DNA of 64,000 nucleotides, taken from assembly GCA_002070505.1 (NCBI GenBank), contig MWDJ01000010.1, positions 1 through 64,000 on the forward strand. Reading direction: 5' to 3'. This document shows, in pieces, positions 35,224-52,231 of the stretch. Numbering within the stretch: the stretch's first letter is position 1; each line of letters opens with the position of its first letter. The notes under the pieces were generated by a model, which saw only the letters and a list, made by a program, of their open reading frames with translations, made no database searches and was not told where the DNA came from. A program made the translations under genes and the position numbers. This stretch comes from Bacteroidetes bacterium ADurb.Bin145. Lineage in GTDB: Bacteria > Bacteroidota > Bacteroidia > Bacteroidales > VadinHA17.

Positions 35224-36576
35224 ATGCAGGGGAGAGCAGAAAGTCTCAGGGCTGAGAAATTGGGGAAACTACTTGTAAGTTATTCGCTTCCTGCCATTAT
35301 AGCCACATCTGCAGCTTCTCTTTATAACATTACCGACAGGATCTTTATCGGGCAGGGAGTAGGGCCTCTTGCTATTTCAGGGCTTGCCCTGACCTTCCCC
35401 CTGATGAATATTACAGCGGCTTTCGGGGCAATGGTTGGCGTCGGTGCCAGTGCGATGGTATCTATCCGCCTTGGGCAACACGACAGAAAAGGCGCAACCC
35501 AGATACTTGGCAATGCTGTAATGCTTAATATTATTCTTGGGATTGTTATAGGGGCACTTGCTTTTATCTTTCTGGAACCGATATTGTTCGCTCTCGGTGC
35601 CAGCAAGGAGACATTTCCCTTCGCAAAAGAATATATGCAAATAATTCTGTTGGGGAATGTATTCACTCATCTCTACCTTGGGATGAACAATATAATGCGG
35701 GCGTCAGGTTATCCGTCAAAAGCAATGGTAACAACATTAATCACGGTTGTGGTCAACCTGATACTTGACCCTTTATTCATATTTGTTTTCAAGTGGGGCA
35801 TACAGGGAGCTGCAATTGCTACAGTACTTTCGCAAATTGCAGGTATGATAACTACTGTCATTCATTTTGCCAAAAGCAAGAGTTTTGTTCATTTTCTCCC
35901 GGGATATATGAAGCTTAAGAAAGTGATAATAAATGGTATTATCTCGATCGGCATGTCCAACTTCCTGATGCTTATCACCGGCAGTGTGGTTATATCCCTG
36001 ATAAATCTAAATCTCGGCAGGTATGGTGGTGACCTTGCTGTCGGGGCTTTTGGCATAATTTACAGTATAGCAAATCTTGCAGGAATGGTTGTTGTTGGAT
36101 TAAACCAGGGGATGCAGCCTATAGTCGGGTATAATTTCGGAGCAAGAAATACTGACCGCGTTATTAAGGCTTTTAAGCTTACTGTGTTTGCTGCGACAGC
36201 GGTAACATCGGTGATGTTTCTGTTTGCCGAAATGCTTCCGGGGCTTATTGCACGTGCCTTTACAAGAAGCCCGGAGCTCATCAGCCTGACTATAAGCGGA
36301 ATGAGATTATTCCTGCTGGTCTTCCCTATAGTCGGATTTCAAATGGTAACTTCAAGTTTTTTCCAGTCAATAGGCAAAGCCAGGATATCAATTTTTCTTT
36401 CCCTGACCCGTCAGGTCCTGTTCTTAATCCCTGCCCTTCTTATTTTACCCCGATTAATCGGGCTGCCCGGAGTGTGGCTTGCGGGATCTGTATCTGATTT
36501 CATCTCGTCGCTTGTGACATTTATTGTTCTCAGATGGCAGTTAGGAAAGCTCAGGAAAAATGCCGGCATTACATGA
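35224..36576 (+). CDS. MATE family efflux transporter
   Basis: A multidrug or toxin extruder driven by sodium or proton gradients, 450 residues, with about 12 predicted membrane helices. Family marks include the N-terminal RIFIGQGVGPLAISGLALTF and the mid-protein GMNNIMRASGYPSKAM, plus NQGMQPIVGYNFGARN near residues 298-313, which is typical of the NorM/DinF branch. Its last 8 bases overlap the end of the convergent ABC-2 permease gene at 36569. No substrate can be named. Confidence 0.9.
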   Translation: MQGRAESLRAEKLGKLLVSYSLPAIIATSAASLYNITDRIFIGQGVGPLAISGLALTFPLMNITAAFGAMVGVGASAMVSIRLGQHDRKGATQILGNAVMLNIILGIVIGALAFIFLEPILFALGASKETFPFAKEYMQIILLGNVFTHLYLGMNNIMRASGYPSKAMVTTLITVVVNLILDPLFIFVFKWGIQGAAIATVLSQIAGMITTVIHFAKSKSFVHFLPGYMKLKKVIINGIISIGMSNFLMLITGSVVISLINLNLGRYGGDLAVGAFGIIYSIANLAGMVVVGLNQGMQPIVGYNFGARNTDRVIKAFKLTVFAATAVTSVMFLFAEMLPGLIARAFTRSPELISLTISGMRLFLLVFPIVGFQMVTSSFFQSIGKARISIFLSLTRQVLFLIPALLILPRLIGLPGVWLAGSVSDFISSLVTFIVLRWQLGKLRKNAGIT

Positions 36577-37285
36577 ATTTTTCCCTTTTCTGCAGGTTAA
36601 GTAATGCGGCCAGCAGGAATATTACAGATCCTGTGATTAGAATGATCCTGTTCTTCAGGGTTATGATAGCCCAGGTTGTTTCGCTTACATCATAAGCAGG
36701 TGAAAAGGGATTCAGGAACACATTCCACTGGCTTTTTCGGAGAGGATCCTGAAGAATAAGGAAGAATATTCCAAAGATGATCATCACGACAGCAGTTCCA
36801 TTCCCGTTCCTGATGAAAGTAGAAAGCATGAATGCCATCATTCCAAGAAAGATCACGGGTATCATTACCTGTGATGTTACCTTTAAAAATTGAAATCTGA
36901 CTATGAGTACAGAGGAGAGAAAAGTAAAGAGGATCATCATCATGTAAGCGATTGTGAATATCAGGATAATTCTGATCAGCCAGACCTTGTACCTGTAATT
37001 CGGGATGCCGAATAGGATCTCTATAGTCCTTGAATCCTGATCATTCTGGATCCCGAATACAGCAGGATAAAAGACAAGAAGTATCCCTGAAAAGATAAAT
37101 ACGCCATAAAGATCAGACATCCTTGAGATATCGTTCGTAAAAACATACAGGACTGAAAGGCCCAGATAGAACCCTATCGATCCTGCAAGAAACCATATGA
37201 ACTTGTTCGCAAAGATGATCCTCAGGTTATAGATTATCATCTTCCGGAAAAGTATGAAATAATTACGCAATGTTATTGTGTCCAT
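36569..37285 (-). CDS. ABC-2 type permease, last gene of the hybrid RND-ABC operon
   Basis: A 238-residue membrane protein with six hydrophobic segments (about residues 28-50, 60-80, 102-128, 138-158, 165-182 and 212-230), the pattern of an ABC-2 permease. Segments such as NDQDSRTIEILFGIPNYRYKVW match the cytoplasmic coupling region of these permeases. Its start lies inside the last codons of the RND-ABC fusion gene (23-base overlap), so it is translated with that gene and is the likely partner of the fused ATPase domain. The transported substrate is unknown. Confidence 0.82.
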   Translation of the reverse strand: MDTITLRNYFILFRKMIIYNLRIIFANKFIWFLAGSIGFYLGLSVLYVFTNDISRMSDLYGVFIFSGILLVFYPAVFGIQNDQDSRTIEILFGIPNYRYKVWLIRIILIFTIAYMMMILFTFLSSVLIVRFQFLKVTSQVMIPVIFLGMMAFMLSTFIRNGNGTAVVMIIFGIFFLILQDPLRKSQWNVFLNPFSPAYDVSETTWAIITLKNRIILITGSVIFLLAALLNLQKREKFM

Positions 37286-40200
37286 TGTTCAATTTTCTTC
37301 TTAGCAGCCATAAATAAGCATCTTCAAGATTCGGGGTCACTGAAACAGCGTTTTCCCATGGTTTGGTATCTGAGATAACACGAACCCTGATTTTATCTCC
37401 TTCTGACATATGATGCACTACAAGATTCTCATTCACTATTCTTTCAAAATCATCTGAAGCAATCATGAATTGCCATACATGTCCCTCTGCCTCTTTTGTC
37501 ATGTCTATTGGTTTTCCCAGGTACCTGAGTTTCCCTTTATCGAGAACAGCGACCTTATTACAGGAGCTTGAGATATCTTCAATGATGTGAGTGGAAAAGA
37601 TAACGACCCGTTCACGGCTAAGTTCTACAAGAAGGTTCCTGAAACGTATTCTTTCCCGTGGATCAAGGCCTGCAGTCGGTTCATCAACAACCAGTATCCT
37701 GGGCAGATGCAGAAGGATCAGTGCAATACCCATTCTCTGTTTCATTCCTCCGGAATAAGAACTGATCTTTTCATGTCTCCTTTCCTCCATATGAACAGCC
37801 TTAAGAACATAAGTCACCCTTTCCTGCCTTGTTTTTGAGTCGGTAATGTTTTTCAGTATTGCCTGATAATCAAGGTATTCATCAGCAGTCATATTTTCAT
37901 AGCTTCCGAATTCCTGAGGAAGATATCCTATCAGACCCTGCAGCTCCTCGCGTTTTTTCTGGGTATCAAGACCATTTATCCAGACCTTCCCGTAACTTTG
38001 TTCAAGAATCCCGCAGATGACCCTCATCAGCGTTGTTTTCCCGGCACCATTCGGTCCCAGCAAACCAAACATTCCATTACCTATATCAAGCGAGACACAA
38101 CTTAAAGCTTTGAATGGTTTCTTCTTCTTGCCTATAACCGGGACAACAGATACTAATTTATAGACAGCTTTCCGGATGCCTTTAAATCTGCCTTCAAGCC
38201 TGTAGATATCTGTATTTTCCCTTGTAAGTTTTAAACCTGTTTTATAAATGAAGAGAGCTGTGAACCAGATGAATCCGAGGATAATTACGGTTGGCAGGTT
38301 TTTCCATCTGATCTGAAAGAAAATGAGATTCAAAAGCGGGACAATCCAGAAAACTATCAGATCAATAGTTTTAATTAAAAATGAGATCAGTTTCTTTTGT
38401 TTTCCCGCGTTGAGGTTTTTTAGCAGTTGACTGACAGAACTCCATATTGATGAGAGGAAAAACCATACAATAATGCTGAGTACAAAGATCCAGAATCCTT
38501 TCTTAAGATAAAAGTAAGTGAAATAGACAAGGAAACTGAAAACAGGAAGTTGCCATAGCTTGTCAGACAGATCTTTCCATGTGGTAAATGGCTTTTCATA
38601 ACCAAGACGCTTTCTGATCTTCTTCCCTGCATCCCATTCCCTGAGCCATCTGCTTTTCCTGTCATATATTTTTACCAGGCTCTGAATTTTAATATTTATA
38701 TTCTCTTCACTTGGAATGACGGATTCTTTTGCTTTCCTCAGGCTGTTCATAACAAACCAGGTACCTGCCGGGACAATTATCAGCGCCAGAATTGTAGTGA
38801 TCAGCTGCCAGAGAAATTTATCAATGTTACGGAAAATTATTAAAAGCAATGAAGCGAAGATGATTGCCTGAATGATTTTATTTTTCCAAGAAAGCGACTT
38901 TATCCAGTTTAGACTATTTTCCAGTCCTGAGTAAAATGTTGGTATGAATACAAGTGTCAGCAAGGTGCTCATTGTAAGACCGCCTATTACGGTTATGGCA
39001 AAAGAGGCTCCTATGACTGAAACATATTCTGCTTTACCCATTGCCAGCGGGATCATAGCCACAACTGTTGTGGATGCGGTTATAAGGACCGGTCTGAGCC
39101 TTGCCACGCCTGCTGTCATAAGTGCCCTTGTCCTCCTGTAACCTCTTTTTCTTAAAATATTTGTATAATCGATAAGTATTATGCCATTGTTCACTACAAT
39201 ACCGAGAAGAATCAGAAATCCTGTCAGAGTGTTCAGATTAAGGAGTGAATTACCTGTAAGGATCAGTGCAATAATCGAACCGAGTCCGGCAAGAGGTATA
39301 CTGAAAAGAAGCACAAAGGGGATCCAGAGAGATTCAAATACTGCAGCAAGTATCATCAGGATCAGAACGAAAGCAATACCTAAGGGCTGGTAGAAATCTT
39401 TAAGCGCATTTTCTTCATGGATGACTTCCACAGCAATCCCGGGCGATAAATTAAGAGCAGCAACAAGGTTTTCAATTTCCAGCCGGGCTCCTTCAAGCAA
39501 ATCTTTTGAATCATTTATTTCGTCGGTGAAACTGTAACTGACAGTTATAAGTTTTTCCTGGTTTTCACGGTGGATATTTCCCATTCCATAGGAAAATACT
39601 ATGTCAGCAAGCTCACTGATATTCATTATTGTTCCTTCTGACGAACTGACTTCCAAATCCTTTAAGTCATCAATTGTCTTGTCAGTGATCTCCTCAGTTT
39701 CGCCTTGTTCGTCAGTGTACTTCAGAATTATGGAGTAGTACTCCGTCCCCTGTCTGAATGTAGCCCCGGATGAATATTCCCGTCCGAAAGTTGCAAGAGC
39801 TGACGAGATATTACCTAAGGAGAATCCATTCCTGTTAATAAAATCCATGTCAAAATTCAGTTTTACTTCCGGAGTGCCTGACTGAACATTAACACTTACG
39901 TTTTCAATTGTTGTCAGTTCGTCAATATATGTTTTAATATCATCGGCAAGATTTCTCATTTCTTCAAAATCCTGGCCTTTTATTATCACACTTTCATTCT
40001 GCGATCCCAGTCCCAGAAGGTTTAGCAGATTTCCTCCTGTTCCCGCACTGCCGCCTCCCAGGGCTCCTGATGATTCAAATCCTCCGCTGGCAGATATTTC
40101 ATCCATGCTTATTTCTGCATTTGAGATATTCCTGGTCCTTTCTTCAATATCATTCTTAATTTCAGGAAGATCACGGTCGCTCTTTTTATCCCAGTCTTTT

Positions 40201-42023
40201 GCCAGGTTAATTGTTACAGTTGCCTGGTCCTCCTCAATTCTGCTTATAACATCTTCTTTTTCGGGTACATTTGCAAGCCGTTTTTCTATTTCACTAACTA
40301 CAGCATCAGTTTTTTCAAGGGTGGAGCCAGCAGGCATTGTAACCGACAATCTGAAACTGGCTGATTCAATTTCCTGGGTGGAATTAATGCTTAAAGTGAG
40401 ACTAATGAGCAGGGCTGCAAAGAATGCCACAAGGCTTCCGATAATCGTAAGAACGGGCTTTCTCATGCTGGCTTTAAGAACAAGATTATATGCCTGGATG
40501 ACCCTGTTATGAATTGAAAGTTTCTTATAGATGGCCGATTCCCCTTTCTGAGACCGCGTAAGTAAAAAATATGTTGCCATGGGAATGACCATTAATGCAA
40601 CAGCCAGCGAAGCAAGAAGTGTTGTTACAATTGATACTCCGATATTCCTGATCACGAGCCTTATCAGGAAATTTGATGAAAAAACGAAGGGAAGGAATAC
40701 TATAATTGTCGTCAGGGTTGAAGCAAAGATCGATCGCCACACTTCTGTAGTTCCCTGTTTTACTGAATCCTCATTACTTCTGCCTGACCCTGCCAGGCGA
40801 TATACATTTTCCAGTACGACCACGGAATTATCAACGAGCATACCTATGGCCAGAGCTAGGCCGACAAGCGTGAGACTGTTGATAGTGATGCCGGATGCAT
40901 AGAAAAAATTGAAAGCAGTGTACACAGATACCGGAATCGAAATTGCGATTATGCCAATGAGCCTGATGTTACGAAGGAAAAACCAAAGTATAAGCACAGC
41001 GAGAAGACCTCCTGTAAAGGCCAGGTTGATTATCTGAGAAATGTTCTTCTCCATTATCTCCGCACTGTTGTTCTGCACAACAATCTCTGCATTTAATCTC
41101 TTCAGGCTTTCGTTAATTTTATTTATCTGGTCAAGCACCCTGTGGGACAAATCAATGATATTGGCCTGATTGTCATTAGTAAGCGTTATTGTGACTGCAT
41201 CAAGGCCATTAACACGGCTATATGATTCCTGTTCCTTTACACCGAAAAATATCTGGGCAATATCACGCAACAGAACCGGGCCATTCTTGCTTACTGTTAT
41301 GTTACCGATATCTTTTATATCGGTATATTCCGATCTTATGTTCACAAAAAGCCTTTTATCACCATCATGAACTTCTCCGACAAAAGTCTTATCAGCTCCG
41401 TTGTTGCTGAGGAGGTTGCTTACCTGGCTCATAGTAATTCCATAAGCCTTGCAGGCTTTCCTGTTAAGCCTTATTTCAATTGAATTCTCCTGTCCGCCAA
41501 AAACTTCCACACCTGCTATACCATCAATATTTTCAAGTTCCGTTACTATCTCCCTGTCAGCTATGTTTCTTATCCTGTCTATACCTCCTTCTCCCCGCAC
41601 CTGAAGTTCCATGAACTGATTAGTGAGTTGCTCGAGATCAATTTTCAGAACATTGATCTGAAATTCATCGGGGATGGAACTTTTTACCAGATCAATTTTC
41701 TCCTGAAGCTTCAGGTTAGCATATTTCATGTTCGCCCCCTGATTGTAAAATACTGATATCGTACCATACCTTGATGTAACTGTACTTTCAAGCTTCTCAA
41801 TGCCTTCCAGTGTTCCTATAGCACCTTCGATAGGTATAATAGCCTGGTTTTCTATGTAAGAAGGATCCATTTCCAGCATAGTACCTACCTGCACAAAAAT
41901 TGCAGGTAATTCTGCATTCGGGATAAGCTCAACAGAAAGTTTCTTATAGGAGACATAACCGAGCATTGTAAGCGCGGCAAATATCATAATTATCAGAATT
42001 CTTCTTTTCAGGATAAAGTTCAT
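37263..42023 (-). CDS. RND efflux pump fused to six extra membrane helices and an ABC ATPase domain
   Basis: A 1586-residue single frame, against about 1040 for a normal RND pump. Residues 1 to about 1025 are a complete HAE-1 RND permease: first membrane helix near 8-25, porter domains, the TM4 motif GMLVDNS, and VNNGIILID near TM10. A Gly-rich loop (SSGALGGGSAG) lies near 660. Residues about 1040-1280 add roughly six hydrophobic helices. Residues about 1295-1500 are an intact ABC ATPase: Walker A GPNGAGKTT near 1321, signature SGGMKQR near 1422, Walker B VVDEPTAGLDP near 1442, H-loop STHI near 1477. A C-terminal tail resembles that of the standalone ATPase at 51338. Start ATG 42023 is used; the frame also opens 36 codons earlier inside the previous gene. 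Confidence 0.88.
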   Translation of the reverse strand: MNFILKRRILIIMIFAALTMLGYVSYKKLSVELIPNAELPAIFVQVGTMLEMDPSYIENQAIIPIEGAIGTLEGIEKLESTVTSRYGTISVFYNQGANMKYANLKLQEKIDLVKSSIPDEFQINVLKIDLEQLTNQFMELQVRGEGGIDRIRNIADREIVTELENIDGIAGVEVFGGQENSIEIRLNRKACKAYGITMSQVSNLLSNNGADKTFVGEVHDGDKRLFVNIRSEYTDIKDIGNITVSKNGPVLLRDIAQIFFGVKEQESYSRVNGLDAVTITLTNDNQANIIDLSHRVLDQINKINESLKRLNAEIVVQNNSAEIMEKNISQIINLAFTGGLLAVLILWFFLRNIRLIGIIAISIPVSVYTAFNFFYASGITINSLTLVGLALAIGMLVDNSVVVLENVYRLAGSGRSNEDSVKQGTTEVWRSIFASTLTTIIVFLPFVFSSNFLIRLVIRNIGVSIVTTLLASLAVALMVIPMATYFLLTRSQKGESAIYKKLSIHNRVIQAYNLVLKASMRKPVLTIIGSLVAFFAALLISLTLSINSTQEIESASFRLSVTMPAGSTLEKTDAVVSEIEKRLANVPEKEDVISRIEEDQATVTINLAKDWDKKSDRDLPEIKNDIEERTRNISNAEISMDEISASGGFESSGALGGGSAGTGGNLLNLLGLGSQNESVIIKGQDFEEMRNLADDIKTYIDELTTIENVSVNVQSGTPEVKLNFDMDFINRNGFSLGNISSALATFGREYSSGATFRQGTEYYSIILKYTDEQGETEEITDKTIDDLKDLEVSSSEGTIMNISELADIVFSYGMGNIHRENQEKLITVSYSFTDEINDSKDLLEGARLEIENLVAALNLSPGIAVEVIHEENALKDFYQPLGIAFVLILMILAAVFESLWIPFVLLFSIPLAGLGSIIALILTGNSLLNLNTLTGFLILLGIVVNNGIILIDYTNILRKRGYRRTRALMTAGVARLRPVLITASTTVVAMIPLAMGKAEYVSVIGASFAITVIGGLTMSTLLTLVFIPTFYSGLENSLNWIKSLSWKNKIIQAIIFASLLLIIFRNIDKFLWQLITTILALIIVPAGTWFVMNSLRKAKESVIPSEENINIKIQSLVKIYDRKSRWLREWDAGKKIRKRLGYEKPFTTWKDLSDKLWQLPVFSFLVYFTYFYLKKGFWIFVLSIIVWFFLSSIWSSVSQLLKNLNAGKQKKLISFLIKTIDLIVFWIVPLLNLIFFQIRWKNLPTVIILGFIWFTALFIYKTGLKLTRENTDIYRLEGRFKGIRKAVYKLVSVVPVIGKKKKPFKALSCVSLDIGNGMFGLLGPNGAGKTTLMRVICGILEQSYGKVWINGLDTQKKREELQGLIGYLPQEFGSYENMTADEYLDYQAILKNITDSKTRQERVTYVLKAVHMEERRHEKISSYSGGMKQRMGIALILLHLPRILVVDEPTAGLDPRERIRFRNLLVELSRERVVIFSTHIIEDISSSCNKVAVLDKGKLRYLGKPIDMTKEAEGHVWQFMIASDDFERIVNENLVVHHMSEGDKIRVRVISDTKPWENAVSVTPNLEDAYLWLLRRKLNNGHNNIA

Positions 42024-42042
42024 AGTACGCCCTTGTAAGAAG

Positions 42043-45000
42043 TTATAATTTAGCAGCTTCCGTTTGTGATCTGCCTGTGATCCATTTGCTGAAACTATCC
42101 AGGAACCAGTACACGCATGGAATAACGACAAGTGTCAGCATTGTCGAAGAAACGAGGCCTCCTATTACCGCAAGAGCCATAGGGGATCTCAGGGAGGCAC
42201 TCTCTCCGAATCCGATAGTAAGCGGGAGCAGGGCAAGAATGGTAGTCAGGCTCGTCATAAGTATCGGTCTTATCCTTTGTGAGCCGGCAGCTATTATTGC
42301 CGCCTTCTTGCCGAATCCGTCCTCTCGGAGCTGATTAATCCTGTCAATGAGTATAATAGCATTATTGACAGCGATGCCACCAAGCATAATAATACCTATA
42401 TAGGCCATCATATTTAAAGTTTTACCCAGAAGGAAAAAAATGAGTATTGTTCCCACACCGGCAAGAGGTACTGTAAGCATTATTATGAATGGCTGTATAA
42501 TTGATTCAAATTGAGCAGCGAGGACCATGAACACAAGAATAAGTGACAGGATCAGTGCAAACGACAGATTTGACATTGATTGCTTTCTCTGGAGTTCCTC
42601 CCCTGTGAATTCCATCTTGTAATCTACAGGCATCGTTACCGGCCGGAGAGCCATCTGCGCCTCCTTAATGACTTTATCGAAAGCATATTTTTTATCAACA
42701 TTAGCATACAGATAGCTGGTCCTTGCCTGGTTCCTCCTTGTTATTTCACGCGGTGAGACAACAGTGTTTATCCTGGCAAGTTCACTTAACGGAACTTTCA
42801 GGCTTCCTGCAGTGATCATAATATCTTTTAGCTGGCTGATTGAGACATCCTCCAGCTTTACAGTAATATCCTTAATCTCACCATTCTCTTCAAAAGTTCC
42901 TGCTGAGGAACCTTCCAGATAATTCCTGATCTGATTTGTTATATTCTCAACAGGTACATTATAAAAACTCGATTTGAAACGGTCTATCTCAATTTCCACT
43001 TCAGGAGTACCTTCGTCCATTGAAGTTGTTATGTTGAAGAGAGCCTGGTTATTCTTCAATATTTCTTTTGACTGGTCCAGGATTTTTTCCAGTTCATTGT
43101 AATCATCACCGGATATTTCAAGAATGAAAGGGAATTCTGTGGTCCCGAGAGTAGTTTGCAATGCGCTCTCCTCACGGGTATAACTGGTTTCCATATCTGT
43201 TATGCCGGCAAGATAACTGTCGATGAGATCAATGGCATTTTCAGATATAGAAGAGAATTCCTTTTTAAGTCTGATTTTAAGCGATGCGAAATTTTCTCCT
43301 TGGCTTTCATTCGAAGCAGCGAATGAGGATGTCTGTTGTTTCCCTGCCTGACAGTAGATCAGATCAATTTTTTCTCCAAGTAATTCCCTGACAATGTTTT
43401 CAACTTTCCTTGCAGTGCTGAAGGTCCGGTCAAGACTTGTTCCCTCGGGAAGAGAAAGGTTAATCGTGAATTCAGCCGATTCAGATCCGGGCATAAATTC
43501 ACTGCCAATACGAGGTATGAGCAGAGCTGAACCAGATATCAGTATTGCCGAAAAGATTATCACCAGACCTCTTCGTTCGATTATTCTTTCCAGCAGCTTT
43601 GGATATCCTGGAAAATGAAGGGGCTCCGGATGGAAGGTTTTTTTGTTTTTATCTGAGGACAGGGTTGATACCATCATCGGGATTACCAGCAATGCTATTA
43701 GCAGGGATGATATAAGCGCAAAAGCTACGGTCCAGGCCTGATCCCTGAACATCTCTCCTGATGAGCCATGGAGGTATACTATTGGCAGAAATACAACTAT
43801 GGTTGTTACTGTTGAGGCTGTAATTGCTCCTCCCACCTGGCCGGTGCCATTTATAACAGCATCTTTGAGAGGCATGCCTTCCTCCCTGAGACGCGTTATA
43901 TTCTCGAGGACAACAATTGCATTGTCAACCAGCATGCCGGCTCCCAGAGCCAGGCCTCCCAAAGTCATTATATTAAGGGTCAGGTGACTGAAATACATCA
44001 GGTTAAATGTTGCTATTATAGAAATCGGAATAGCCACGCTTATTACCAGGGTCGTACCGATCCTGCGAAGGAATATATAAAGAACAAAGACAGCCAGCAG
44101 AATCCCCAGAATAAGGGTATTCTTGACTTCACTTATCGCGTTATGGATGTAGTTGCCCTGATCCTGAATTTTAATGAATTCATATCCGGGCAAAGCCTTT
44201 TCGAGAATTGTAAACTCTTTCTCAAGGCTCTTTACTGCATCAACCGTGTTGTACTTTGGCTCTTTATAAACAGATAATCCCACACATCGTTCACCATTAA
44301 TAGTCACAATATTCTCGGGGTCCTTATTGCCGGTTTTGATGGTTGCCACGTCTCTGAGATAGACGGGAACCCTGGAAGAGGCTGAAGAGGTTGAAGAAGT
44401 TGAAGAGGTAGAAGAGGTTGAAGAAGTTGAAGCGGATGGTTGTTTAAATCCAACAATTATATTCTCAAGGTCATTTATATCTTCAAGTACAGTAACTCCC
44501 TTTACCGTGTATTTGGTACCCATTTCCACAATTGATCCGCCTGATACATTCCTGTTATAGGCGCTTATCTGGGATGCGATAACATCAGAAGTTATTCCAA
44601 ACGACTGGAGAAGATAATTATTTGTTTCAATAATTATTTCACCCTCCTCGTCTCCTGTGAGTTTTACATCTGCTATTCCCTCAATTCTCACAAGTTCGTT
44701 CCGGATATAGTTCTCAGCTATTCTCCGGAGGTCGTCCATATTTGTTATTTTATCATTCCTGAAACCCACAACCATTACTGGTGAGGCATTTGGATCATAC
44801 TGGGAGATTGAAAAATCTTCAAGGTCGGAATTCTGAGCAAAGGAATTCAGTTCTTTCTGGAGGTCAAGAAAGGCTTCATCCATGTCCTTGTTCCAATCGT
44901 ATTCGACTGTAATCAGCGCATTTCCGGCTTTTACTACTGAAGAGACCTGAACTACATCTGCCTGGCGCATCGCAAGAGATTCAATCTGCTCGACATAATT

Positions 45001-45186
45001 TTTTTCTATCTCCTCCGGCGGTTTTTCACCGGCTGACAGTTCTATATATATTTTTGGATTATTCAGATTGGGGAAAAGATCTGTTCCGAGCTTGCCAAAG
45101 GAAATAAAACCAAGGAGCACAATACCCAGTACCAACATCAATATTGTTACAGGGTATCTAACAGCAAATTGGGCAATCTTATTCAT
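42043..45186 (-). CDS. RND efflux transporter permease subunit (HAE-1 type)
   Basis: A 1047-residue inner membrane pump powered by the proton gradient, part of a tripartite exporter. Twelve membrane helices are expected: one near the N-terminus, six around residues 345-545 and five near 870-1030. The TM4 motif is GMLVDNA and TM10 has VNNAIILIDRI, a pattern of HAE-1 pumps that differs from AcrB at one aspartate and at the lysine. A low-complexity S/T linker (SASTSSTSSTSSTSSTSSAS) near 250-270 is encoded by a 9-base repeat. It follows the adaptor gene after 4 bases and precedes the RND-ABC fusion by 19 bases. Two RND genes in tandem suggest a heteromeric pump, as in MdtBC. Confidence 0.93.
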   Translation of the reverse strand: MNKIAQFAVRYPVTILMLVLGIVLLGFISFGKLGTDLFPNLNNPKIYIELSAGEKPPEEIEKNYVEQIESLAMRQADVVQVSSVVKAGNALITVEYDWNKDMDEAFLDLQKELNSFAQNSDLEDFSISQYDPNASPVMVVGFRNDKITNMDDLRRIAENYIRNELVRIEGIADVKLTGDEEGEIIIETNNYLLQSFGITSDVIASQISAYNRNVSGGSIVEMGTKYTVKGVTVLEDINDLENIIVGFKQPSASTSSTSSTSSTSSTSSASSRVPVYLRDVATIKTGNKDPENIVTINGERCVGLSVYKEPKYNTVDAVKSLEKEFTILEKALPGYEFIKIQDQGNYIHNAISEVKNTLILGILLAVFVLYIFLRRIGTTLVISVAIPISIIATFNLMYFSHLTLNIMTLGGLALGAGMLVDNAIVVLENITRLREEGMPLKDAVINGTGQVGGAITASTVTTIVVFLPIVYLHGSSGEMFRDQAWTVAFALISSLLIALLVIPMMVSTLSSDKNKKTFHPEPLHFPGYPKLLERIIERRGLVIIFSAILISGSALLIPRIGSEFMPGSESAEFTINLSLPEGTSLDRTFSTARKVENIVRELLGEKIDLIYCQAGKQQTSSFAASNESQGENFASLKIRLKKEFSSISENAIDLIDSYLAGITDMETSYTREESALQTTLGTTEFPFILEISGDDYNELEKILDQSKEILKNNQALFNITTSMDEGTPEVEIEIDRFKSSFYNVPVENITNQIRNYLEGSSAGTFEENGEIKDITVKLEDVSISQLKDIMITAGSLKVPLSELARINTVVSPREITRRNQARTSYLYANVDKKYAFDKVIKEAQMALRPVTMPVDYKMEFTGEELQRKQSMSNLSFALILSLILVFMVLAAQFESIIQPFIIMLTVPLAGVGTILIFFLLGKTLNMMAYIGIIMLGGIAVNNAIILIDRINQLREDGFGKKAAIIAAGSQRIRPILMTSLTTILALLPLTIGFGESASLRSPMALAVIGGLVSSTMLTLVVIPCVYWFLDSFSKWITGRSQTEAAKL

Positions 45187-45190
45187 CGGG

Positions 45191-46240
45191 TTACATAACT
45201 ATTTTTACCTTGGATCTGTTGCTCAGGGTTTCATATCCGCTTATAACGACCCTGTCATTTTTCATAAGGCCCCTTGTGACTTCGACATCTGTCAGGTTTT
45301 CAAGTCCGGTTTCAATGATCCTTTCCTCAGCCAGGCCTCTCTGAACAATAAATACTGTTTTTCCCCTCTGGCGGGAGAGGATTATATTTTTGGGGATCAC
45401 AATAACAGAGTCCTTGCGGTTTGTAACTATATCAGCCTTGACAAACATTCCGGGCCTCAGAAGGTAATTTGTATTAGAGATCTCTACATTGCCTTTAAAA
45501 GTCCGGGAGTCGGCATCAATTGCCGGTGATAATTGTGTCACATGACCCATTACGGTATCTTCCGGGATTGTATAGTTTGTGAGCCGCACATCCTGTCCGG
45601 GTTTAATTACTGAGATGTATTTCTCAGGAAGCTGGACTTCCATGTACATTGTCTGGTAATCCATAATTTTTGCAATAGAAGATCCGGTTTCGATTTGGGT
45701 TCCCGGAGTATAATAAGGGAGGTCAACGATAACCCCGTTAATTGGTGAGATAATCCTTGTCTTTGCCATTTGCAGCTTTGCACTCTCCAGGTTTGTTTTA
45801 GCATTTTCATATTCTATGCTTGCGGTCTTCAGCTCTTTGAGTGTAACACCTCCTTTTTCGTAGAGTGATTCCTGTTTTTTCAGTTCACTTTCAGCAAGCT
45901 CAAGGTTCAGCTGAGTAGTCTCGAGCTTCACGCCAATAACATACTCTCTGTCTTCAAGCCTTGCTATCAGATCACCGGTTCGGACCTTATCTCCCATTTT
46001 CCATGGTTTTCCGGTCTGGGGATTTATTTCAAGATAATAGTTCGCCGATATCTTTGATTTTAATTCTATCTGGCCCTTTGGGAAGGCTGTCCCGGTAGTA
46101 TTAATGAATTCTTCGATCGGTTTCAGGCTTATATCCTGAACGGAGACAGGTATCTCCACATCGGCGGTCAGGTTCTGGTCCTGGTTTCTGCAGGAAGCTA
46201 ATGCAAGAGCTAAAACGACGGCAAGTACAAGATTTTTCAT
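45191..46240 (-). CDS. RND periplasmic adaptor (membrane fusion) lipoprotein
   Basis: A 349-residue HlyD/AcrA-type adaptor that links the inner membrane pump to the outer membrane channel. The signal peptide NLVLAVVLALALASC gives a lipoprotein with cysteine at about residue 17. The order is: barrel-sandwich half (KSKISANYYLEIN), a short coiled-coil hairpin (about residues 100-145), the second lipoyl half (ISPINGVIVDLPYYTPG), then a beta barrel domain and C-terminal end. It is 28 bases after the TolC-like gene and 4 bases before the first RND gene. Confidence 0.93.
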   Translation of the reverse strand: MKNLVLAVVLALALASCRNQDQNLTADVEIPVSVQDISLKPIEEFINTTGTAFPKGQIELKSKISANYYLEINPQTGKPWKMGDKVRTGDLIARLEDREYVIGVKLETTQLNLELAESELKKQESLYEKGGVTLKELKTASIEYENAKTNLESAKLQMAKTRIISPINGVIVDLPYYTPGTQIETGSSIAKIMDYQTMYMEVQLPEKYISVIKPGQDVRLTNYTIPEDTVMGHVTQLSPAIDADSRTFKGNVEISNTNYLLRPGMFVKADIVTNRKDSVIVIPKNIILSRQRGKTVFIVQRGLAEERIIETGLENLTDVEVTRGLMKNDRVVISGYETLSNRSKVKIVM

Positions 46241-46268
46241 TTAAGTACTATTTAATTTTCATTATTTG

Positions 46269-47768
46269 TTAAAGTGTTTTCACCGGAGTTACCGGTACGT
46301 TTTTTTCAAAATCGTAAAGAGTCTGAATTTTGAGATTAAGAAGTTCCAGCTTATATGATATAAGCGAATTGGTGTAAGATATCTGCTGTTGAGAGAGCTG
46401 GTTCTGATAAATGTTCAGATCCATACCGGTAAGATCCCCGTTACGGTATTTTTCCAGATTAAGATCATAGGTCAGCTGGGCATTGTTGACATTCTGGCGT
46501 GCTATTTCAATCTGATTTTTAAGATTGATAAGGTTCCTGCAAACCTGCCTTATATTGAGAATGATATCATTCTGCTCCTCTTCAAGGGATATCTTTGATG
46601 ATTCTATTGAAGCTTCAGAAGCCTTGATCCTTGATTTCCTTTCTCCCCAGTCCCACAGTGGGATTGTAAGTGACAGGGAAACGCTTTCATTATCAGTGGG
46701 ATTTTCATACAAGTTTCCTAAATTCTCATTATCACCAAACAAACCGACTGACAGGTCAAGCTGCCCTTTGAACTCATTCAGAGCTTTTGTTGTAATAAGG
46801 TCAAACTGAGAAGTTTCGAGATTTATCTGACTTTGTCTTATTTCCATCCGGTTTGCAAGGCCCTGGTCAATAGCAAAAGCAACATCTATACCGACTGTAT
46901 CAACTTCAATATTCGGCAATACTAAAAGATCGTCATAAAGACTTATTCCTATAAGTATCTTGAATTCATCCTTGGCATTTTCGAAAGAGACCTGGCTGTT
47001 CTCAAAAGATGATTTTGAAGATGCAAGGTTGAGTTCAGCCTGGAATATTTCTTCGCGGGCAGACAGGCCTGCATCAACTTTATTCTTTATGATCTCGTAG
47101 CTTTTCTGCATATTCTCATAAGCCTGACGATCTATTTCGAGACTTTGCTGTTTCTGGTAGACATTGTAAAAGGATATGGTCACCTGTCTTTCAAGAGAAA
47201 GCAATTGAATTGCGTAATTTAGCTGTGCATTTTCATGAGCCAGCTGGAGTTCCTTTAGCTGCAACCGGGTCCTGTTATAAGTGAAAATAGGTTGTGACAG
47301 GTTCAGCGACAGGCTGTTACTAAATCCTTTATTAGTGTTGTTAGAATATTCACTGTAGGAATCAACATAGCCGAATTTATTTAGAAGCGATACTCTTGCA
47401 TCAGTAAGGAGTATTGGCTGTGAGACAGTAAAAACCCCGTAACTCTCGGTTGTTTTTGTAGTATTCCAGGCCGAAATGAGGTCATTGAATGAACGATCCT
47501 GCCTGTAGGAGAGAGGATTGACTGACAGGGAGAAATTTGATTTCAGGGCGGCATTCTGTGCATTCAGGTTTTCCTGACTCCTGATCAGATTCAGCCTTGT
47601 TCGTTTCATCGCAGGGCTGTTATCCTCAGCAACCTTCAATGATTGTTCCAGTGTAAGCCCCCTTTGGGCGAATGCTGTTAAGCCATGTATAATTAACAGG
47701 AGAATTGCGAGATTAATTCTCTTTCCTGTTTTTACCTGCTTTTTCATTTTTGTTAAATTATAGTTCAT
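46269..47768 (-). CDS. TolC family outer membrane efflux protein
   Basis: A 499-residue outer membrane channel of tripartite exporters. The signal peptide is near residues 18-35 (LAILLLIIHGLTAFAQ). Two homologous halves of long alpha-helices follow (repeats with LNLASSKSSFENSQ and LQLAHENAQLNYA styles), with short strands forming the outer membrane barrel. The ATG at 47768 overlaps the stop codon of the upstream permease (TAATG), suggesting coupling; an ATG seven codons later (47747) is the other possible start. It would connect to the adaptor encoded next. Confidence 0.92.
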   Translation of the reverse strand: MNYNLTKMKKQVKTGKRINLAILLLIIHGLTAFAQRGLTLEQSLKVAEDNSPAMKRTRLNLIRSQENLNAQNAALKSNFSLSVNPLSYRQDRSFNDLISAWNTTKTTESYGVFTVSQPILLTDARVSLLNKFGYVDSYSEYSNNTNKGFSNSLSLNLSQPIFTYNRTRLQLKELQLAHENAQLNYAIQLLSLERQVTISFYNVYQKQQSLEIDRQAYENMQKSYEIIKNKVDAGLSAREEIFQAELNLASSKSSFENSQVSFENAKDEFKILIGISLYDDLLVLPNIEVDTVGIDVAFAIDQGLANRMEIRQSQINLETSQFDLITTKALNEFKGQLDLSVGLFGDNENLGNLYENPTDNESVSLSLTIPLWDWGERKSRIKASEASIESSKISLEEEQNDIILNIRQVCRNLINLKNQIEIARQNVNNAQLTYDLNLEKYRNGDLTGMDLNIYQNQLSQQQISYTNSLISYKLELLNLKIQTLYDFEKNVPVTPVKTL

Positions 47769-50700
47769 TACTGATTATCTTTTGCCCATTTAACTGCATC
47801 GGCGATTACCATCCTTCCTTCTGAAAGATTTGAGATCTTTACTTTAGCCGTATCTGCTGAGAGATAATATCTGCCAAGGTAATTCCAGCCTCCTTCAGCG
47901 TTCTGGTAATCAAAAGTCATCTCTTCCACACCCTGATCATGATATATTTTCAGATGGAGATCCTTTATTGGTGCCTCAGCTCCCGGGCCGCCCTGAAATG
48001 CACCCGGCCCACTTGCTCCGGGAACGTTTCCGGGAGGCATATCTCCCCGGGGCCTACCTCCTCCTGGTCCTCCTCCTGGTCCTCCTCCTCCCGGCCCGCC
48101 TCCTCCCGGCCCTCGTCCGCCGGGGCCCATCGCCCTGCCTCTTACCATTGTCCGCTCAACAGATTTACCCACGTAGAAATATATGTTATAATAACCAGGA
48201 TCTTTTATTATTGCATTCCATGTTGCCTCCTTATTGCCTGATCCTGCCCTTGTATATACCGCTGAAAGAATATATCTCCCGTAATATGATGATTGAACAA
48301 CCGGCTGCCAGTGTTCAGGAGCATACATATTGTTGATCTGCAAATATGTATTTCCCTGGTTGTTATTTATTTTAAGCAGCTTTTTTAAAGGGCTATTATC
48401 GATCTGCCTCGAAATATGGAATAGTGAGTCCTCATTATCAATGATTATTTCATCGGGATTACCATAATCAGGAATTGATGGAAGGAGTTCTTCTCCTGTA
48501 AAAGGTTTTGTTCCTTCTTTTATCCTCCCTATTTCATTGACTGGTATGATAAGCTGACCAGGAATATTCTTGGAAAAAATTGTGTTTATCATCATGGCCC
48601 TGGGTTCTGCGTCAAGTATTAAGCCTATTCTCTTAGCTTCACAACTGTCTATTGATACTATTTTTGATATATCAGCAGATTCCATTCCCCTTCCCTGTCG
48701 TGAAATAGCCATTATTCCCCTGCCTCCGCCGGGCATCATCAACGGTCCCCTGCCTCCCGGCCCTCCCTGCGGGCCTGCACCTCCCGTACGGAAAGAGATA
48801 TTGAACAGACCTGTAACAGGCTCCGGATTAGAAGCCACAAAAGTCACCTGATATCTTACCCGGTTTTCCACAACAATTTCTGATACCTGAAGATTACTGA
48901 TTATAAAACCGGGAAGCTCTTTACTCCCGAACCAGTTATCAAGGTATGGGTAAAAGCCAAAGCCAAATTTTTCAATCATGTCGTTGTTGAATTGCTCAAT
49001 ACCGACACTTCTGAACCTGTGGTCATCAAGGTATTTTTTGAACCAGTCGTTGAATTCCTCAATACCTGCTTTTGCCCTGAAAAGATTGAAAAGATAATCT
49101 CCCTTGACAGTCAGAACCTGCCTTATAGTGTCACTCGCAGGATTCTTCGAGAGAAGTTCCCTGAAACTGTACCTGCTGAGGATAAGATTAGCCTGGTCAT
49201 TATCTGTCATCACCCGGTCCATCCCCTGGTACCCTGAAGGTAATGGTGAAGCAACCTTTTGAAGGTGAGATTCAAAAGCTGCATTTATTCCAGGATAATC
49301 ATGTGAATAGAAATTGTTTTTAAAAAAGTAAAAGCTCGGACTCAGACGATACCGGACCGGCTCATTAACTGCATTCCCATTGACGAACCTGAAGTTCTCA
49401 CCACTGATGAAAGTATTCCTGATAAAGTCATTGAATAACCTTACCTCCAGCTCTTTATCAGTAATTACAGTGTTGCTTCTTGCCATCCTCCTCTTCTGTC
49501 TGGCTTTCTGTTTACGAAAACCGGCATTTCTGATCGTGGCCATTCTCTCAGGGAGAAGCACCAATGACGGCTGAATCTCTGCCCTTGTCTGAGTGCTCAT
49601 CCTCGGGTATGAATAAAACTGTACCGGAACCTCGACGAAACTCAGAGTATTAAATGGATATTCCGAAGAAAAATTTGTCTCCAGTTCAGTCATTATTCCC
49701 GATACCAGCAAAGAAAGGGTATCTTTCAGTTCACTGAACTCATTCCTGTAATAATCGTTACCAGGGAAATAATGAGTTATGTAATTAATAGAATCAACTG
49801 TTAAGGTATCAGAAAGATAATTGCCAATCGCCAGAGTTAAACCTGTGAGCGGGAATTCCGTCCTGAAGGTGTAAATTTCAGTTTCCTTTTTCATAATTCC
49901 CTGGGAAACTGGTACTAATCCGGGAGTGGTTTTTACCCTGAGATCGAAATTTGTAAAATCAATCTTCATTCTTGCAGGATTATCAGGATAATAGTTTAAT
50001 CCCGGAACCGGGTACCAGTGAGTTTCCGGAGTCAGTAAAACAAAATCCTTAGTCAGGAAAGCCTGTCGTTTATTTACCCGGAGCATCTCAATCATGTATG
50101 GATTATCCTTTATGTTTCCTGTGTAATTCGGATAGCAGAATGCTTCATGAATGCTCCCGGCGTAAGTAATTGTCAATGAATCCTTCTGTCCGGGTTGAAG
50201 CATCGCAGGCAACCCGACCAGAATGATATGATTCACTGTTTTGAAATCAATTTCCTGACCGCTATGGTAAACTTGCTTTACTTTCAGACCGGGATTCAGG
50301 GAAAAGAAGCATTCATTTATTCCGGTCTTATTTTCGTTAACGAAACATAAGGCAGCTTCAGCTTCGATTTCCCCGCCTGAATGTGAAATATCGATTTTTG
50401 CATCGGTCAGTGTTACGGCATCCTGGCTTTCAAATTGCCTGTTTGTCTCGATTATCAGCTTCCTTTCATTAAGATTTCTCTTATAAATTAAGAAAGTGTT
50501 TTTTGTACAAATAATTGTCCCTGCAAGAGAAAGGAAGAGAAGAACGTAACAAAGAGTAGTTTGTAATTTTGACTGGGGCAACCTCTTAAATGTTAAAATT
50601 GTTGCCATAACCAGGCAAAGTCCGAAAAGCAGGTACATCAGACGCTGGTTAACAATAAGCTGGTTATTGTCAAATCCGATGATTCCCGATTTAAAAACCG

Positions 50701-51328
50701 GAAGGCCGAAAGCCATATAATCAAATAAGGAACCCATCCTGTAATACAGCCAGAACATGTTAAGAGCAGCGAGACCAAGTAATAAAAGAAATGTAATAGC
50801 CTGATTACCTATAATTTGCATAAGCATAAAAGCAAGTCCAAGGCTGAAAATTATTGTCGGAACCGATATTATCAGAAGGTATTGCAGATAAGAGACCAGG
50901 TCCACACTCATGTCTTTTGAGATTATATTCATCAGCAGGGCGATGAAGAGAATTATGATATCCAGACCTATGAAAAGCTTCAGGATTCCCCATGTCTTAC
51001 CGGTTATATATTCAAAATTTGATACAGGTCTTGTATAAAGCACTTCATTTGTGTCGATTTTTTTATCCCTTTTCAGGAAATCGGCTGCCAGGAATATGAC
51101 CACTATTGATTGTACAATGTTCAGAATATAGAGGTTAATAAGAGGAACTGAGGACGGGATAGAAACAAGTTCCCATGATTCATCTCCAATGGGAGAAAAG
51201 AGCCCGATGTTCAGAAAGGTAAAAATCACGAACGAACCTATAGCAAAAAGCCTGAAGAACCAGCTTCTTCGAAGGGTCACAGCCTCATATCGGGCTACTG
51301 TTCTTATATTATGAAAAAATGTTATCAC
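47768..51328 (-). CDS. ABC permease fused to an M1 peptidase-like domain and a golvesin-like C-terminus
   Basis: A 1186-residue membrane protein. Residues 1 to about 300 have six or more hydrophobic helices like an ABC-2 permease. Residues about 310-830 resemble the M1 aminopeptidase-like part of known Bacteroidetes permease/M1 fusions, but no HEXXH zinc motif is present, so it is probably inactive as a peptidase. Two Gly-rich stretches (near 849-871 and 1068-1118, built from G, P and R) interrupt the protein. The last 150 residues (with GGWNYLGRYYLSAD and MVIADAVKW) resemble golvesin-type carbohydrate- or protein-binding C-terminal domains. The partner ATPase gene starts the operon 9 bases upstream. 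What it exports or binds is unknown. Confidence 0.82.
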   Translation of the reverse strand: MITFFHNIRTVARYEAVTLRRSWFFRLFAIGSFVIFTFLNIGLFSPIGDESWELVSIPSSVPLINLYILNIVQSIVVIFLAADFLKRDKKIDTNEVLYTRPVSNFEYITGKTWGILKLFIGLDIIILFIALLMNIISKDMSVDLVSYLQYLLIISVPTIIFSLGLAFMLMQIIGNQAITFLLLLGLAALNMFWLYYRMGSLFDYMAFGLPVFKSGIIGFDNNQLIVNQRLMYLLFGLCLVMATILTFKRLPQSKLQTTLCYVLLFLSLAGTIICTKNTFLIYKRNLNERKLIIETNRQFESQDAVTLTDAKIDISHSGGEIEAEAALCFVNENKTGINECFFSLNPGLKVKQVYHSGQEIDFKTVNHIILVGLPAMLQPGQKDSLTITYAGSIHEAFCYPNYTGNIKDNPYMIEMLRVNKRQAFLTKDFVLLTPETHWYPVPGLNYYPDNPARMKIDFTNFDLRVKTTPGLVPVSQGIMKKETEIYTFRTEFPLTGLTLAIGNYLSDTLTVDSINYITHYFPGNDYYRNEFSELKDTLSLLVSGIMTELETNFSSEYPFNTLSFVEVPVQFYSYPRMSTQTRAEIQPSLVLLPERMATIRNAGFRKQKARQKRRMARSNTVITDKELEVRLFNDFIRNTFISGENFRFVNGNAVNEPVRYRLSPSFYFFKNNFYSHDYPGINAAFESHLQKVASPLPSGYQGMDRVMTDNDQANLILSRYSFRELLSKNPASDTIRQVLTVKGDYLFNLFRAKAGIEEFNDWFKKYLDDHRFRSVGIEQFNNDMIEKFGFGFYPYLDNWFGSKELPGFIISNLQVSEIVVENRVRYQVTFVASNPEPVTGLFNISFRTGGAGPQGGPGGRGPLMMPGGGRGIMAISRQGRGMESADISKIVSIDSCEAKRIGLILDAEPRAMMINTIFSKNIPGQLIIPVNEIGRIKEGTKPFTGEELLPSIPDYGNPDEIIIDNEDSLFHISRQIDNSPLKKLLKINNNQGNTYLQINNMYAPEHWQPVVQSSYYGRYILSAVYTRAGSGNKEATWNAIIKDPGYYNIYFYVGKSVERTMVRGRAMGPGGRGPGGGGPGGGGPGGGPGGGRPRGDMPPGNVPGASGPGAFQGGPGAEAPIKDLHLKIYHDQGVEEMTFDYQNAEGGWNYLGRYYLSADTAKVKISNLSEGRMVIADAVKWAKDNQ

Positions 51329-51337
51329 ACTATAATT

Positions 51338-52231
51338 TTATTCAGCTATGTCTGCATGTAATTTATGTTCCATGAAATACACATATGCATGTTCGATGTT
51401 GGGGATGATTTCGGAGCAGGCAAATTCAGGTAAATCATCTGATACGATCTGCACTTCCCAGCCTGTTTCTACTGGTATTGTTGAAATGACATTATATTTT
51501 TCTTTTACATCTTCATATTCGGAAGGGGTCAGGTTTAATTTAAAAACGTGGTTTTCTGCATGTCTTATAAGCTCCGGTGGTGAACCTGAGAAGACCAGTT
51601 CTCCTTTGTTCAGCAAAGCCATTCCCTGGCAGGTAGATGATATGTCTCCAACAATATGGGTTGAAAGAATGATAGTGACATTATGCTGTGTGAGCTGGGA
51701 AAGGATGTTCCTGAATCTTATTCTCTCATCAGGATCAAGACCTGTCGTAGGTTCATCGACTACAATTATAGAAGGACTGCCAATAAGAGCCTGAGCTATT
51801 CCAAGACGCCTTTTCATCCCACCCGACAACCTGTTAGCCTGCCTGTCCCTCACTTCAAGCAAACCCACCTGGTCAAGCAGCCTGTCAACTTCGGCAAGCC
51901 TGGCCTTCCTGTTCTTCATACCGGCCAGAGCTCCGGAATAATCAAGGAATTCCCATGTTTTCAGGGAGGTAAAAAATCTGAAATCCTGAGGCAGATAGCC
52001 GAGCATGCTTCGTAATTCCTTCCGGTATTTCTGAATATCTTTTCCATCGATAAGCACCGAACCTGATGTGGGTTTCATCAGTGCAACTATGATCCTCATC
52101 AGGCTTGATTTACCGGCTCCGTTAGGTCCAAGAAGGCCGAACATCCCGGTCCCGAACTCGAGATTAATATCTTTTAATGCCTGATTACCGTTGGGATAAA
52201 TCTTATTCAGTCCCAGAATTTCCACTTTCAT
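51338..52231 (-). CDS. ABC transporter ATP-binding protein, first gene of the hybrid operon
   Basis: A 297-residue ATPase driving the permease encoded next. Walker A is GPNGAGKSS (near residues 36-44), Q-loop in GYLPQDF, signature SGGMKRR near 139, Walker B VVDEPTTGLDP near 159, and H-loop STHI. The C-terminal 80 residues form an extra domain seen in gliding-type or drug-type ABC-2 ATPases. It is strikingly similar to the ATPase domain at the end of the RND fusion, with shared phrases FGLLGPNGAGK and DERIRFRN or RERIRFRN, indicating a common origin. No clear promoter consensus was found in the 231 bases upstream. Confidence 0.93.
   Translation of the reverse strand: MKVEILGLNKIYPNGNQALKDINLEFGTGMFGLLGPNGAGKSSLMRIIVALMKPTSGSVLIDGKDIQKYRKELRSMLGYLPQDFRFFTSLKTWEFLDYSGALAGMKNRKARLAEVDRLLDQVGLLEVRDRQANRLSGGMKRRLGIAQALIGSPSIIVVDEPTTGLDPDERIRFRNILSQLTQHNVTIILSTHIVGDISSTCQGMALLNKGELVFSGSPPELIRHAENHVFKLNLTPSEYEDVKEKYNVISTIPVETGWEVQIVSDDLPEFACSEIIPNIEHAYVYFMEHKLHADIAE

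What the first reader, a model, noticed from the sequence alone, without database searches (positions are those of the whole stretch)
36569..52231. Seven-gene hybrid RND-ABC export operon
Seven tightly packed minus-strand genes combine a full tripartite RND set (outer membrane channel, adaptor, two RND pumps) with two ABC systems (ATPase plus large permease; ATPase domain fused to an RND pump plus small permease). Spacings are 9, overlap, 28, 4, 19 bases and a 23-base overlap, so one message is likely. RND pumps use the proton gradient and ABC systems use ATP; joining both in one operon and partly in one polypeptide is unusual and may describe a single machine, perhaps for a lipid or peptide substrate.
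Basis: partly seen in the sequence, partly recalled or inferred. Interest (0 to 1): 0.87.

Follow-up and report, generated by a model that had tools for sequence, protein, structure and literature searches.

The report
Export pump fused to ATP engine
Seven neighbouring genes, kept in the same order in many Bacteroidota, appear to encode one export apparatus that joins two normally separate kinds of pump, one usually driven by protons and one by ATP, partly in a single protein chain; what it exports is unknown.

Summary
Seven minus-strand genes (36569-52231) encode an ABC ATPase (NBD1), an ABC-2-like permease with a degenerate M1-peptidase-like region and a Golvesin_C domain, a TolC-type channel, an adaptor, an RND pump, a second RND pump fused to an ABC ATPase (NBD2), and a small ABC-2-like permease. 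The fusion is conserved: 29 of 60 relatives match, 28 across the RND-ATPase junction; 6 of 395 phylum genomes, own included. Gene order is collinear in 20 of 20 and 80 of 80 fetched loci as far as each reaches (the sets overlap; 14 show all seven genes). ATPase motifs are intact in at least 76 of 77 fusions.

New: the fused ATPase appears split. Its first strand and A-loop tyrosine lie before a 181-residue insert carrying about four membrane helices; the rest follows.

Best reading: one trans-envelope exporter, a two-RND pump tethered to one heterodimeric ABC-2 transporter. Assembly, energy use and substrate are inferred. In the window both RND pumps keep one of two proton-relay aspartates and lack the lysine. 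Six literature searches aimed at an RND-ABC fusion found none. New variant of a known kind.

The parts
51338..52231 (-). ABC ATPase 1 (NBD1, P0007, 297 aa), first gene
   Evidence: ABC_tran E 1.3e-31; Walker A, LSGGMKRR, DEPTTGLDP and STHI invariant in 15 of 15 aligned rows
47768..51328 (-). ABC-2-like permease with degenerate M1-peptidase-like periplasmic region and Golvesin_C domain (P0006, 1186 aa)
   Evidence: at E up to 1, ABC2_membrane_2 in 9, Peptidase_M1 in 6 (best 4e-4), Golvesin_C in 16 of 16 rows; no HExxH in 15 of 16 rows, the one in L051 lies outside the M1-like stretch
46269..47768 (-). TolC-type outer membrane channel (P0005, 499 aa)
   Evidence: OEP E 1.9e-52
45191..46240 (-). 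periplasmic adaptor, probable lipoprotein (P0004, 349 aa)
   Evidence: RND_mfp above cutoff (190.2 vs 94.9 bits); lipobox-like LASC near the N terminus; a strict lipobox pattern is met in 14 of 20 rows, one of which is cut
42043..45186 (-). RND pump 1 (P0003, 1047 aa)
   Evidence: ACR_tran over residues 4-1029, E 5.7e-220; closest solved structure by sequence MdtB
37263..42023 (-). RND pump 2 fused to ABC ATPase (P0002 from its ATG; residues 37-1622 of the ORF)
38919..42023 (-). RND domain of the fusion (residues 37-1071)
   Evidence: ACR_tran 37-1068
38661..38918 (-). two added membrane helices and the presumed first strand with A-loop Tyr of the ATPase (residues 1072-1157, ending INIKIQSLVKIYD)
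38118..38660 (-). 181-residue insert with about four membrane helices that splits the ATPase domain (residues 1158-1338)
   Evidence: helices; length; no consistent Pfam family
37263..38117 (-). remainder of the ATPase domain (residues 1339-1622 and stop)
   Evidence: motifs; hhalign to NBD1, 41% identity
36569..37285 (-). small ABC-2-like permease (P0001, 238 aa)
   Evidence: six membrane peaks, helical model; best fold matches NosDFY and PmtCD chains, E about 0.01, none at E up to 0.001

Best explanation
The operon encodes one trans-envelope exporter. Shown by sequence: a TolC-type channel, an adaptor, two RND pumps, two ABC ATPases and two ABC-2-like permeases, together in every locus long enough to tell; the second RND pump and one ATPase are one polypeptide joined by a membrane linker of about six helices, the last four of which appear to sit inside the ATPase domain. 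Inferred: the two RND proteins form a mixed trimer, as MdtB2C does; NBD2, tethered to one protomer, pairs with NBD1 on the two permeases to make one heterodimeric ABC transporter held beside the trimer. The ABC part would use ATP to move an amphiphilic substrate across or out of the inner membrane, the M1-like and Golvesin_C domains of the large permease would hold it on the periplasmic side, and the RND trimer would pass it through adaptor and channel to the outside. Substrate type (peptide, lipid or lipopeptide) is a guess.
For: Matches in 29 of 60 relatives, 24 of 36 in the genus, own included, 19 of them end to end; 6 of 395 phylum genomes, own included. Gene order collinear in 20 of 20 and 80 of 80 loci (overlapping sets). 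NBD2 motifs: Walker A in 76 of 77, signature, Walker B and H-loop in 77 of 77. NBD1 is the closest ATPase to NBD2 in the genome (226 bits, next 141), yet NBD2 forms its own clade across taxa and NBD1 one side of a branch, weakly supported. In the 14 complete loci each part occurs once. The linker was found only inside fusions, in 6 of 395 and 5 of 395 genomes, own included. Foldseek puts chains of NosDFY entries at rank 3 for the linker-ATPase model and rank 1 for the small permease. Two-RND pumps can be B2C trimers (passages of PMC12802153 and PMC4338810), which would place one NBD2 per trimer.
Against: No assembly, transport or transcript data. Profile comparison does not detect similarity between the two permeases (probability 0.4%), and their ABC-2 assignment is weak by sequence, so the heterodimer is unproven. 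RND1 and RND2 are only 29% identical. Distance correlations are equally high for all three pairs tested (0.96), so they show joint inheritance, not contact. The canonical proton relay is incomplete in both RND proteins in most rows, so proton drive is not assured. Distribution is patchy.
Confidence: 0.58

Rival explanations
1. Two separate transporters work in series: the ABC parts carry the substrate from cytoplasm to periplasm and the RND tripartite pump carries it out; the fusion only keeps them close or co-expressed.
For: Parts for both steps are present in one tight gene row.
Against: The covalent fusion and the elaborate linker recur in all fetched homologues that reach the junction, apart from 4 of 80 named loci where the ORF is in pieces, and the linker was not found without an RND part; a mere tether would be expected to vary or be lost.
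Confidence: 0.2
2. The tethered ATPase does not transport but gates or recharges the RND pump, so that ATP helps to drive an RND cycle whose proton relay is incomplete.
For: TM4 has one Asp and mostly Asn in place of the second Asp, and no Lys is seen in TM10 in the rows shown; the ATPase motifs are intact.
Against: An RND protein elsewhere in this genome (L006) has the same DN pair without this fusion; a few rows keep DD (2 of 20 RND1 rows; 1 of 69 RND2 rows); the operon brings two ABC-2-like permeases, as for an ordinary ABC transporter.
Confidence: 0.12
3. Two homodimeric ABC transporters (NBD1 with the large permease; NBD2 with the small permease), sit in the same complex or operon.
For: Gene adjacency pairs NBD1 with the large and NBD2 with the small permease; the two permeases are not detectably similar.
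Against: NBD1 and NBD2 are nearest to each other in the genome, and two NBD2 per dimer would need two RND2 protomers per ABC unit.
Confidence: 0.08
4. Assembly or annotation artefact.
For: The window is from a draft genome of 218 contigs; the fusion ORF is in pieces in 4 of 80 named loci.
Against: Same fusion and order in other genomes, including five named strains of five genera.
Confidence: 0.01

Closest known systems
MdtABC / MuxABC two-RND tripartite pumps
   Same: Two RND genes in tandem with an adaptor; RND1's best solved relative is MdtB
   Different: No ABC part; MdtB and MdtC share about 50% identity (PMC4338810 passage) against 29% here; MdtB has the complete DD/K relay (PMC12802153 passage), the window's pumps do not
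NosDFY and other ABC-2 exporters (PmtCD; DrrAB type recalled)
   Same: NBD and six-helix permease folds rank highest or near it; which chain of the entry is NosF or NosY is inferred
   Different: Here one NBD is fused to an RND pump and appears split by a membrane insert; one permease has an M1-like region and a Golvesin_C domain
MacAB-TolC tripartite ABC exporter
   Same: ABC transporter encoded with an adaptor; the related VarACDEF also has a channel protein (PMC5595328 passages)
   Different: MacB has four membrane segments and a large periplasmic domain (same passages); here ABC-2-like permeases plus RND pumps
GldA of gliding motility
   Same: The GldA model matches both NBDs
   Different: Far below the curated cutoff (180.6 and 170.1 vs 402.6 bits)

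Membership tests
HAE-1 RND tripartite pumps | Full-length AcrB-type pump with adaptor and channel | tested here: met
   ACR_tran over profile positions 1-1020 and 2-1018 of 1021 in the two pumps; OEP and RND_mfp genes adjacent
HAE-1 RND tripartite pumps | Proton relay Asp-Asp in TM4 and Lys in TM10 | tested here: not met
   First Asp kept; second is Asn in 18 and Asp in 2 of 20 informative RND1 rows, and Asn in 19 and Thr in 2 of 21 RND2 rows; in the named set 1 of 69 informative RND2 rows has DD. No Lys in the TM10 rows shown (19 of 21 RND1, 21 of 21 RND2). Position of the Lys from the MdtB alignment
MdtABC-type heterotrimer | Two RND genes in one operon | tested here: met
   (adjacency; co-transcription not shown)
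MdtABC-type heterotrimer | B2C stoichiometry | not testable with these tools
   Only single chains could be modelled
ABC-2 exporter | Intact NBD motifs | tested here: met
ABC-2 exporter | Six-helix permease of the ABC-2 fold | tested here: met
   Small permease: model, and the first 25 Foldseek rows are NosDFY, PmtCD or ABCG-type structures, but none at E up to 0.001 (best 0.0096). Large permease: weak Pfam matches only, not modelled
MacAB-TolC | MacB-type permease | tested here: not met
   Permease orthologues match ABC-2 families, no MacB or FtsX family in the lists
M1 aminopeptidase | HExxH zinc motif | tested here: not met
   Absent in 15 of 16 rows; the one in L051 lies after the M1-like stretch
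GldA | NCBIfam curated cutoff | tested here: not met

The most novel reading that the evidence does not exclude
A dual-energised exporter in which an ABC engine is built into an RND pump: ATP binding by an ATPase domain that is physically split by a four-helix membrane insert, so that membrane movement and the nucleotide-binding A-loop are coupled in one chain, drives or gates an RND trimer whose own proton relay has been reduced.
Probability: 0.3. Interest if true: 0.88.

Novelty: new variant of a known kind. Interest (0 to 1): 0.72.

Why it matters
RND and ABC transporters are usually treated as separate families with separate energy sources. A conserved polypeptide that contains both, with an ATPase domain apparently interrupted by membrane helices, would be a natural system for asking how a tripartite pump can take energy from ATP and from protons, and how an inner-membrane flipping step is coupled to export through the outer membrane. 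Named strains carry it (Prolixibacter denitrificans, Mangrovibacterium marinum, Sunxiuqinia indica, Gaoshiqia sediminis, Maribellus sp.), so it can be tested.

Tried and rejected
Artefact fusion: rejected. Flanking lipid A genes (HD gene, lpxD, lpxC-fabZ, lpxA upstream) as a clue to the substrate: found in 4 of 4 same-genus upstream flanks read (G001, G003, G009, G016) but in 0 of 6 upstream flanks from other genera (3.5-7.5 kb each), so treated as chance neighbours. M1 peptidase activity: no HExxH at the site. Similarity of the two permeases: not detected. A Pfam family for the linker: apart from the RND end only weak matches in single members. Other large ABC proteins of the genome as RND fusions: four of those listed were read (L158-L161); they look like ABCG-type proteins with no RND part, by reading the translation only. 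Plasmid copies of the linker: none at E up to 0.001. Mirror-tree: a first value of 0.197 was wrong, because truncated loci contributed the wrong ORF; corrected to 0.963 on 15 rows, but NBD2-RND1 and NBD1-RND1 give 0.960 as well, so it is not used as evidence of contact. Promoter and terminator scan: 51 promoter-like sites against 37.7 (sd 6.3) expected and 15 terminator-like against 12.7 (sd 3.7); not informative. Whether the split strand packs in the NBD in three dimensions could not be read, because the tools gave no coordinates; Foldseek reports no aligned ranges. A structure of the large permease was not attempted: the loci allowed for that tool hold only about its last third.

Literature: ten searches of the open-licence PMC library. 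Of the six aimed at an RND-ABC fusion, searches returned no paper; two searches listed 13 and 11, none on such a fusion judging by titles and abstract beginnings. Beyond listings I saw only passages of PMC5595328, PMC8277102 (of which the library holds the first 300,000 of about 748,000 characters), PMC12802153 and PMC4338810. Most subscription papers and all bioRxiv preprints are outside that library.
Full report
OBSERVATION. One search gives the seven minus-strand ORFs at the stated coordinates, with spacings of 9, -1, 28, 4, 19 and -23 bases (the fifth when RND2 starts at the ATG at 42023). Family searches give ABC_tran (P0007), OEP (P0005), RND adaptor (P0004), ACR_tran over the full length of P0003, and ACR_tran plus ABC_tran in the single 1622-residue ORF P0002. 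The large permease P0006 has only Golvesin_C above the Pfam cutoff, and the small one P0001 has no match; both needed more work.

CONSERVATION. With P0002 as query, 29 of 60 relatives have a match at E up to 1e-120: 24 of 36 in the genus (the window's own included) and 5 of 24 elsewhere in the order. In 19 the match runs end to end; in the others it is in pieces or cut, mostly at contig ends, and in one (G049) the contig ends before the linker, so the RND-ATPase junction is seen in 28. In an even sample of the phylum it is 6 of 395, own included, at E up to 1e-150. Twenty loci read in wider context are collinear with the window in 20 of 20; 14 of them show all seven genes and the others end at contig or stretch ends (the count uses ORFs on the fusion's strand with a BLAST score above 45 bits). 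A scan of the species-level genome collection with an alignment of the linker region matched 583 stretches, of which 466 encode a relative and the best 80 were kept. In these, order is collinear in 80 of 80 as far as each locus reaches, never as far as the first gene because the flank ends inside the large permease. Some of the 80 are the same contigs as in the G genomes. The fusion ORF is in pieces in 4 of 80 (L073, L075, L085, L088); RND1 is in pieces in L076 and L085. By record title 75 of 80 are Bacteroidota, nearly all MAGs; five are named strains (Sunxiuqinia, Mangrovibacterium, Gaoshiqia, Prolixibacter, Maribellus). The other five records are labelled KSB1 (two), Calditrichota, Actinomycetota and 'bacterium'; they are MAGs and could be mis-binned. 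No plasmid record holds the linker.

ANATOMY OF THE FUSION. Residues 37-1071 are a complete RND pump. A linker follows with two predicted membrane helices, then the peptide INIKIQSLVKIYD (1145-1157), then 181 residues with about four membrane helices, then PFKALSCVSL and the rest of the ATPase (hydropathy peaks vary in number among orthologues). Profile alignment of NBD1 to the linker-ATPase alignment is continuous from NBD1 residue 15 onward. The stretch before it in NBD1, MKVEILGLNKIYP, which holds its first strand and its invariant Tyr12, has its best ungapped match anywhere in the fusion at a segment containing KIY in 63 of 77 sequences; in the other 14 some other segment scores at least as high. 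The Tyr is invariant in 61 of 61 rows of A2. The scan used LVKIY in one of its two patterns, so that set is biased; but the ten rows fetched by whole-protein match and aligned also keep V, K and Y. The model of residues 1062-1622 (mean pLDDT 82.8, pTM 0.65) puts a strand at 1147-1156, helices at 1194-1208, 1212-1244, 1247-1276 and 1279-1305, and a strand at 1340-1350. I conclude, by inference, that the ATPase domain is split by a membrane insert between its A-loop strand and its Walker A half. That 'A-loop' is the usual name of this site is recalled. The linker was found only inside fusions: the same 6 of 395 phylum genomes and 5 of 395 class genomes, own included, all in open frames of 1561-1640 residues. 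No consistent Pfam family covers it.

THE ABC PARTS. NBD2 keeps Walker A in 76 of 77 (one GRTT), and the Q-loop Gln, signature, Walker B and H-loop in 77 of 77. NBD1 is likewise intact in 15 of 15 rows. In the genome, NBD1 is the ATPase nearest to NBD2 (42%, 226 bits; next 141 bits). In a tree of 37 rows (15 NBD1, 12 NBD2, 10 other ATPases of the genome) NBD2 is one clade (98/97) and NBD1 one side of a branch with weak bootstrap (58/95); the other genomic ATPases are on long branches, so their relation is unsure. The small permease has ABC2-family matches in 2 of 12 orthologues (best 6e-5); its model (pLDDT 84.2) is all-helical with a short helix between the second and third long membrane-type pair; the best Foldseek rows are chains of NosDFY and PmtCD (E 0.0096 and 0.011, probability 1.00, TM about 0.5-0.6), with no match at E up to 0.001. 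A chain of a NosDFY entry is also third for the linker-ATPase model; that these chains are NosY and NosF is inferred. The large permease matches ABC2_membrane_2 in 9, Peptidase_M1 in 6 and Golvesin_C in 16 of 16 orthologues at E up to 1, and a profile of it finds M1 peptidases at E 6e-4 over about 80 residues. HExxH is absent in 15 of 16 rows; the one instance, in L051, lies after the M1-like stretch.

THE RND PARTS. RND1's best solved relative by sequence is MdtB, whose alignment shows VDD in MdtB against VDN here, and KKN against VNN. Across 20 informative RND1 rows TM4 has DN in 18 and DD in 2; of 21 RND2 rows 19 have DN and 2 DT. In the named set 1 of 69 informative RND2 rows has DD. So one acidic residue stays and the Lys is not seen in the rows shown. 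This is not unique to the operon: another RND protein of the genome has DN, and one has DD and K. Proton drive is therefore likely but not assured.

MECHANISM. Passages of PMC12802153 and PMC4338810 state that MdtB and MdtC act as a B2C trimer with divided roles. If RND1 and RND2 do the same, with RND2 as the single member, each pump would carry exactly one NBD2, which could pair with NBD1 on the two different permeases to make one heterodimeric ABC-2 transporter. That is the simplest way to use one copy of each part, and it is my best reading; everything in it beyond the sequence facts is inference. Substrate remains open; PmtCD exports amphipathic peptides (recalled), and the M1-like domain would fit a peptide, but neither is evidence.

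LITERATURE. Six searches of the open PMC library aimed at an RND-ABC fusion listed no paper on one, judged by titles and abstract beginnings, and a review of tripartite systems (PMC8277102, passages only; the library holds under half of its text) describes none in the passages seen. This is a limited search.

VERDICT. Whether it is one machine is the open and testable point.

Noticed in passing
window 14937-22364 (+): SprA (SprA_N, E 1.4e-207), 2475 aa; its role in type IX secretion is recalled.
   Followed up: no
window 52463-57046 (+): HD-domain gene, lpxD, lpxC-fabZ fusion and lpxA diverge from the operon; found next to it in 4 of 4 same-genus upstream flanks read and in 0 of 6 from other genera.
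   Followed up: yes
window 35224-36576 (+): MatE-family transporter convergent with the operon; its end overlaps the end of the small permease gene by 8 bases.
   Followed up: no
L073, L075, L085, L088: The fusion ORF is in two or more pieces; sequencing error or decay not decided.
   Followed up: no
L117, L118, L124, L131: Full-coverage linker matches in MAGs labelled Actinomycetota, KSB1 and Calditrichota; transfer or mis-binning not decided.
   Followed up: no
L158-L161 (own genome): Four open frames of 1026-1055 aa that read like ABCG-type ABC proteins with long extra regions.
   Followed up: partly
L122: A 656-aa ORF on the opposite strand matches the fusion at 27% identity; not identified.
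   Followed up: no
window 31710-33005 (-): Glycosyl hydrolase family 10 gene downstream of the operon.
   Followed up: no
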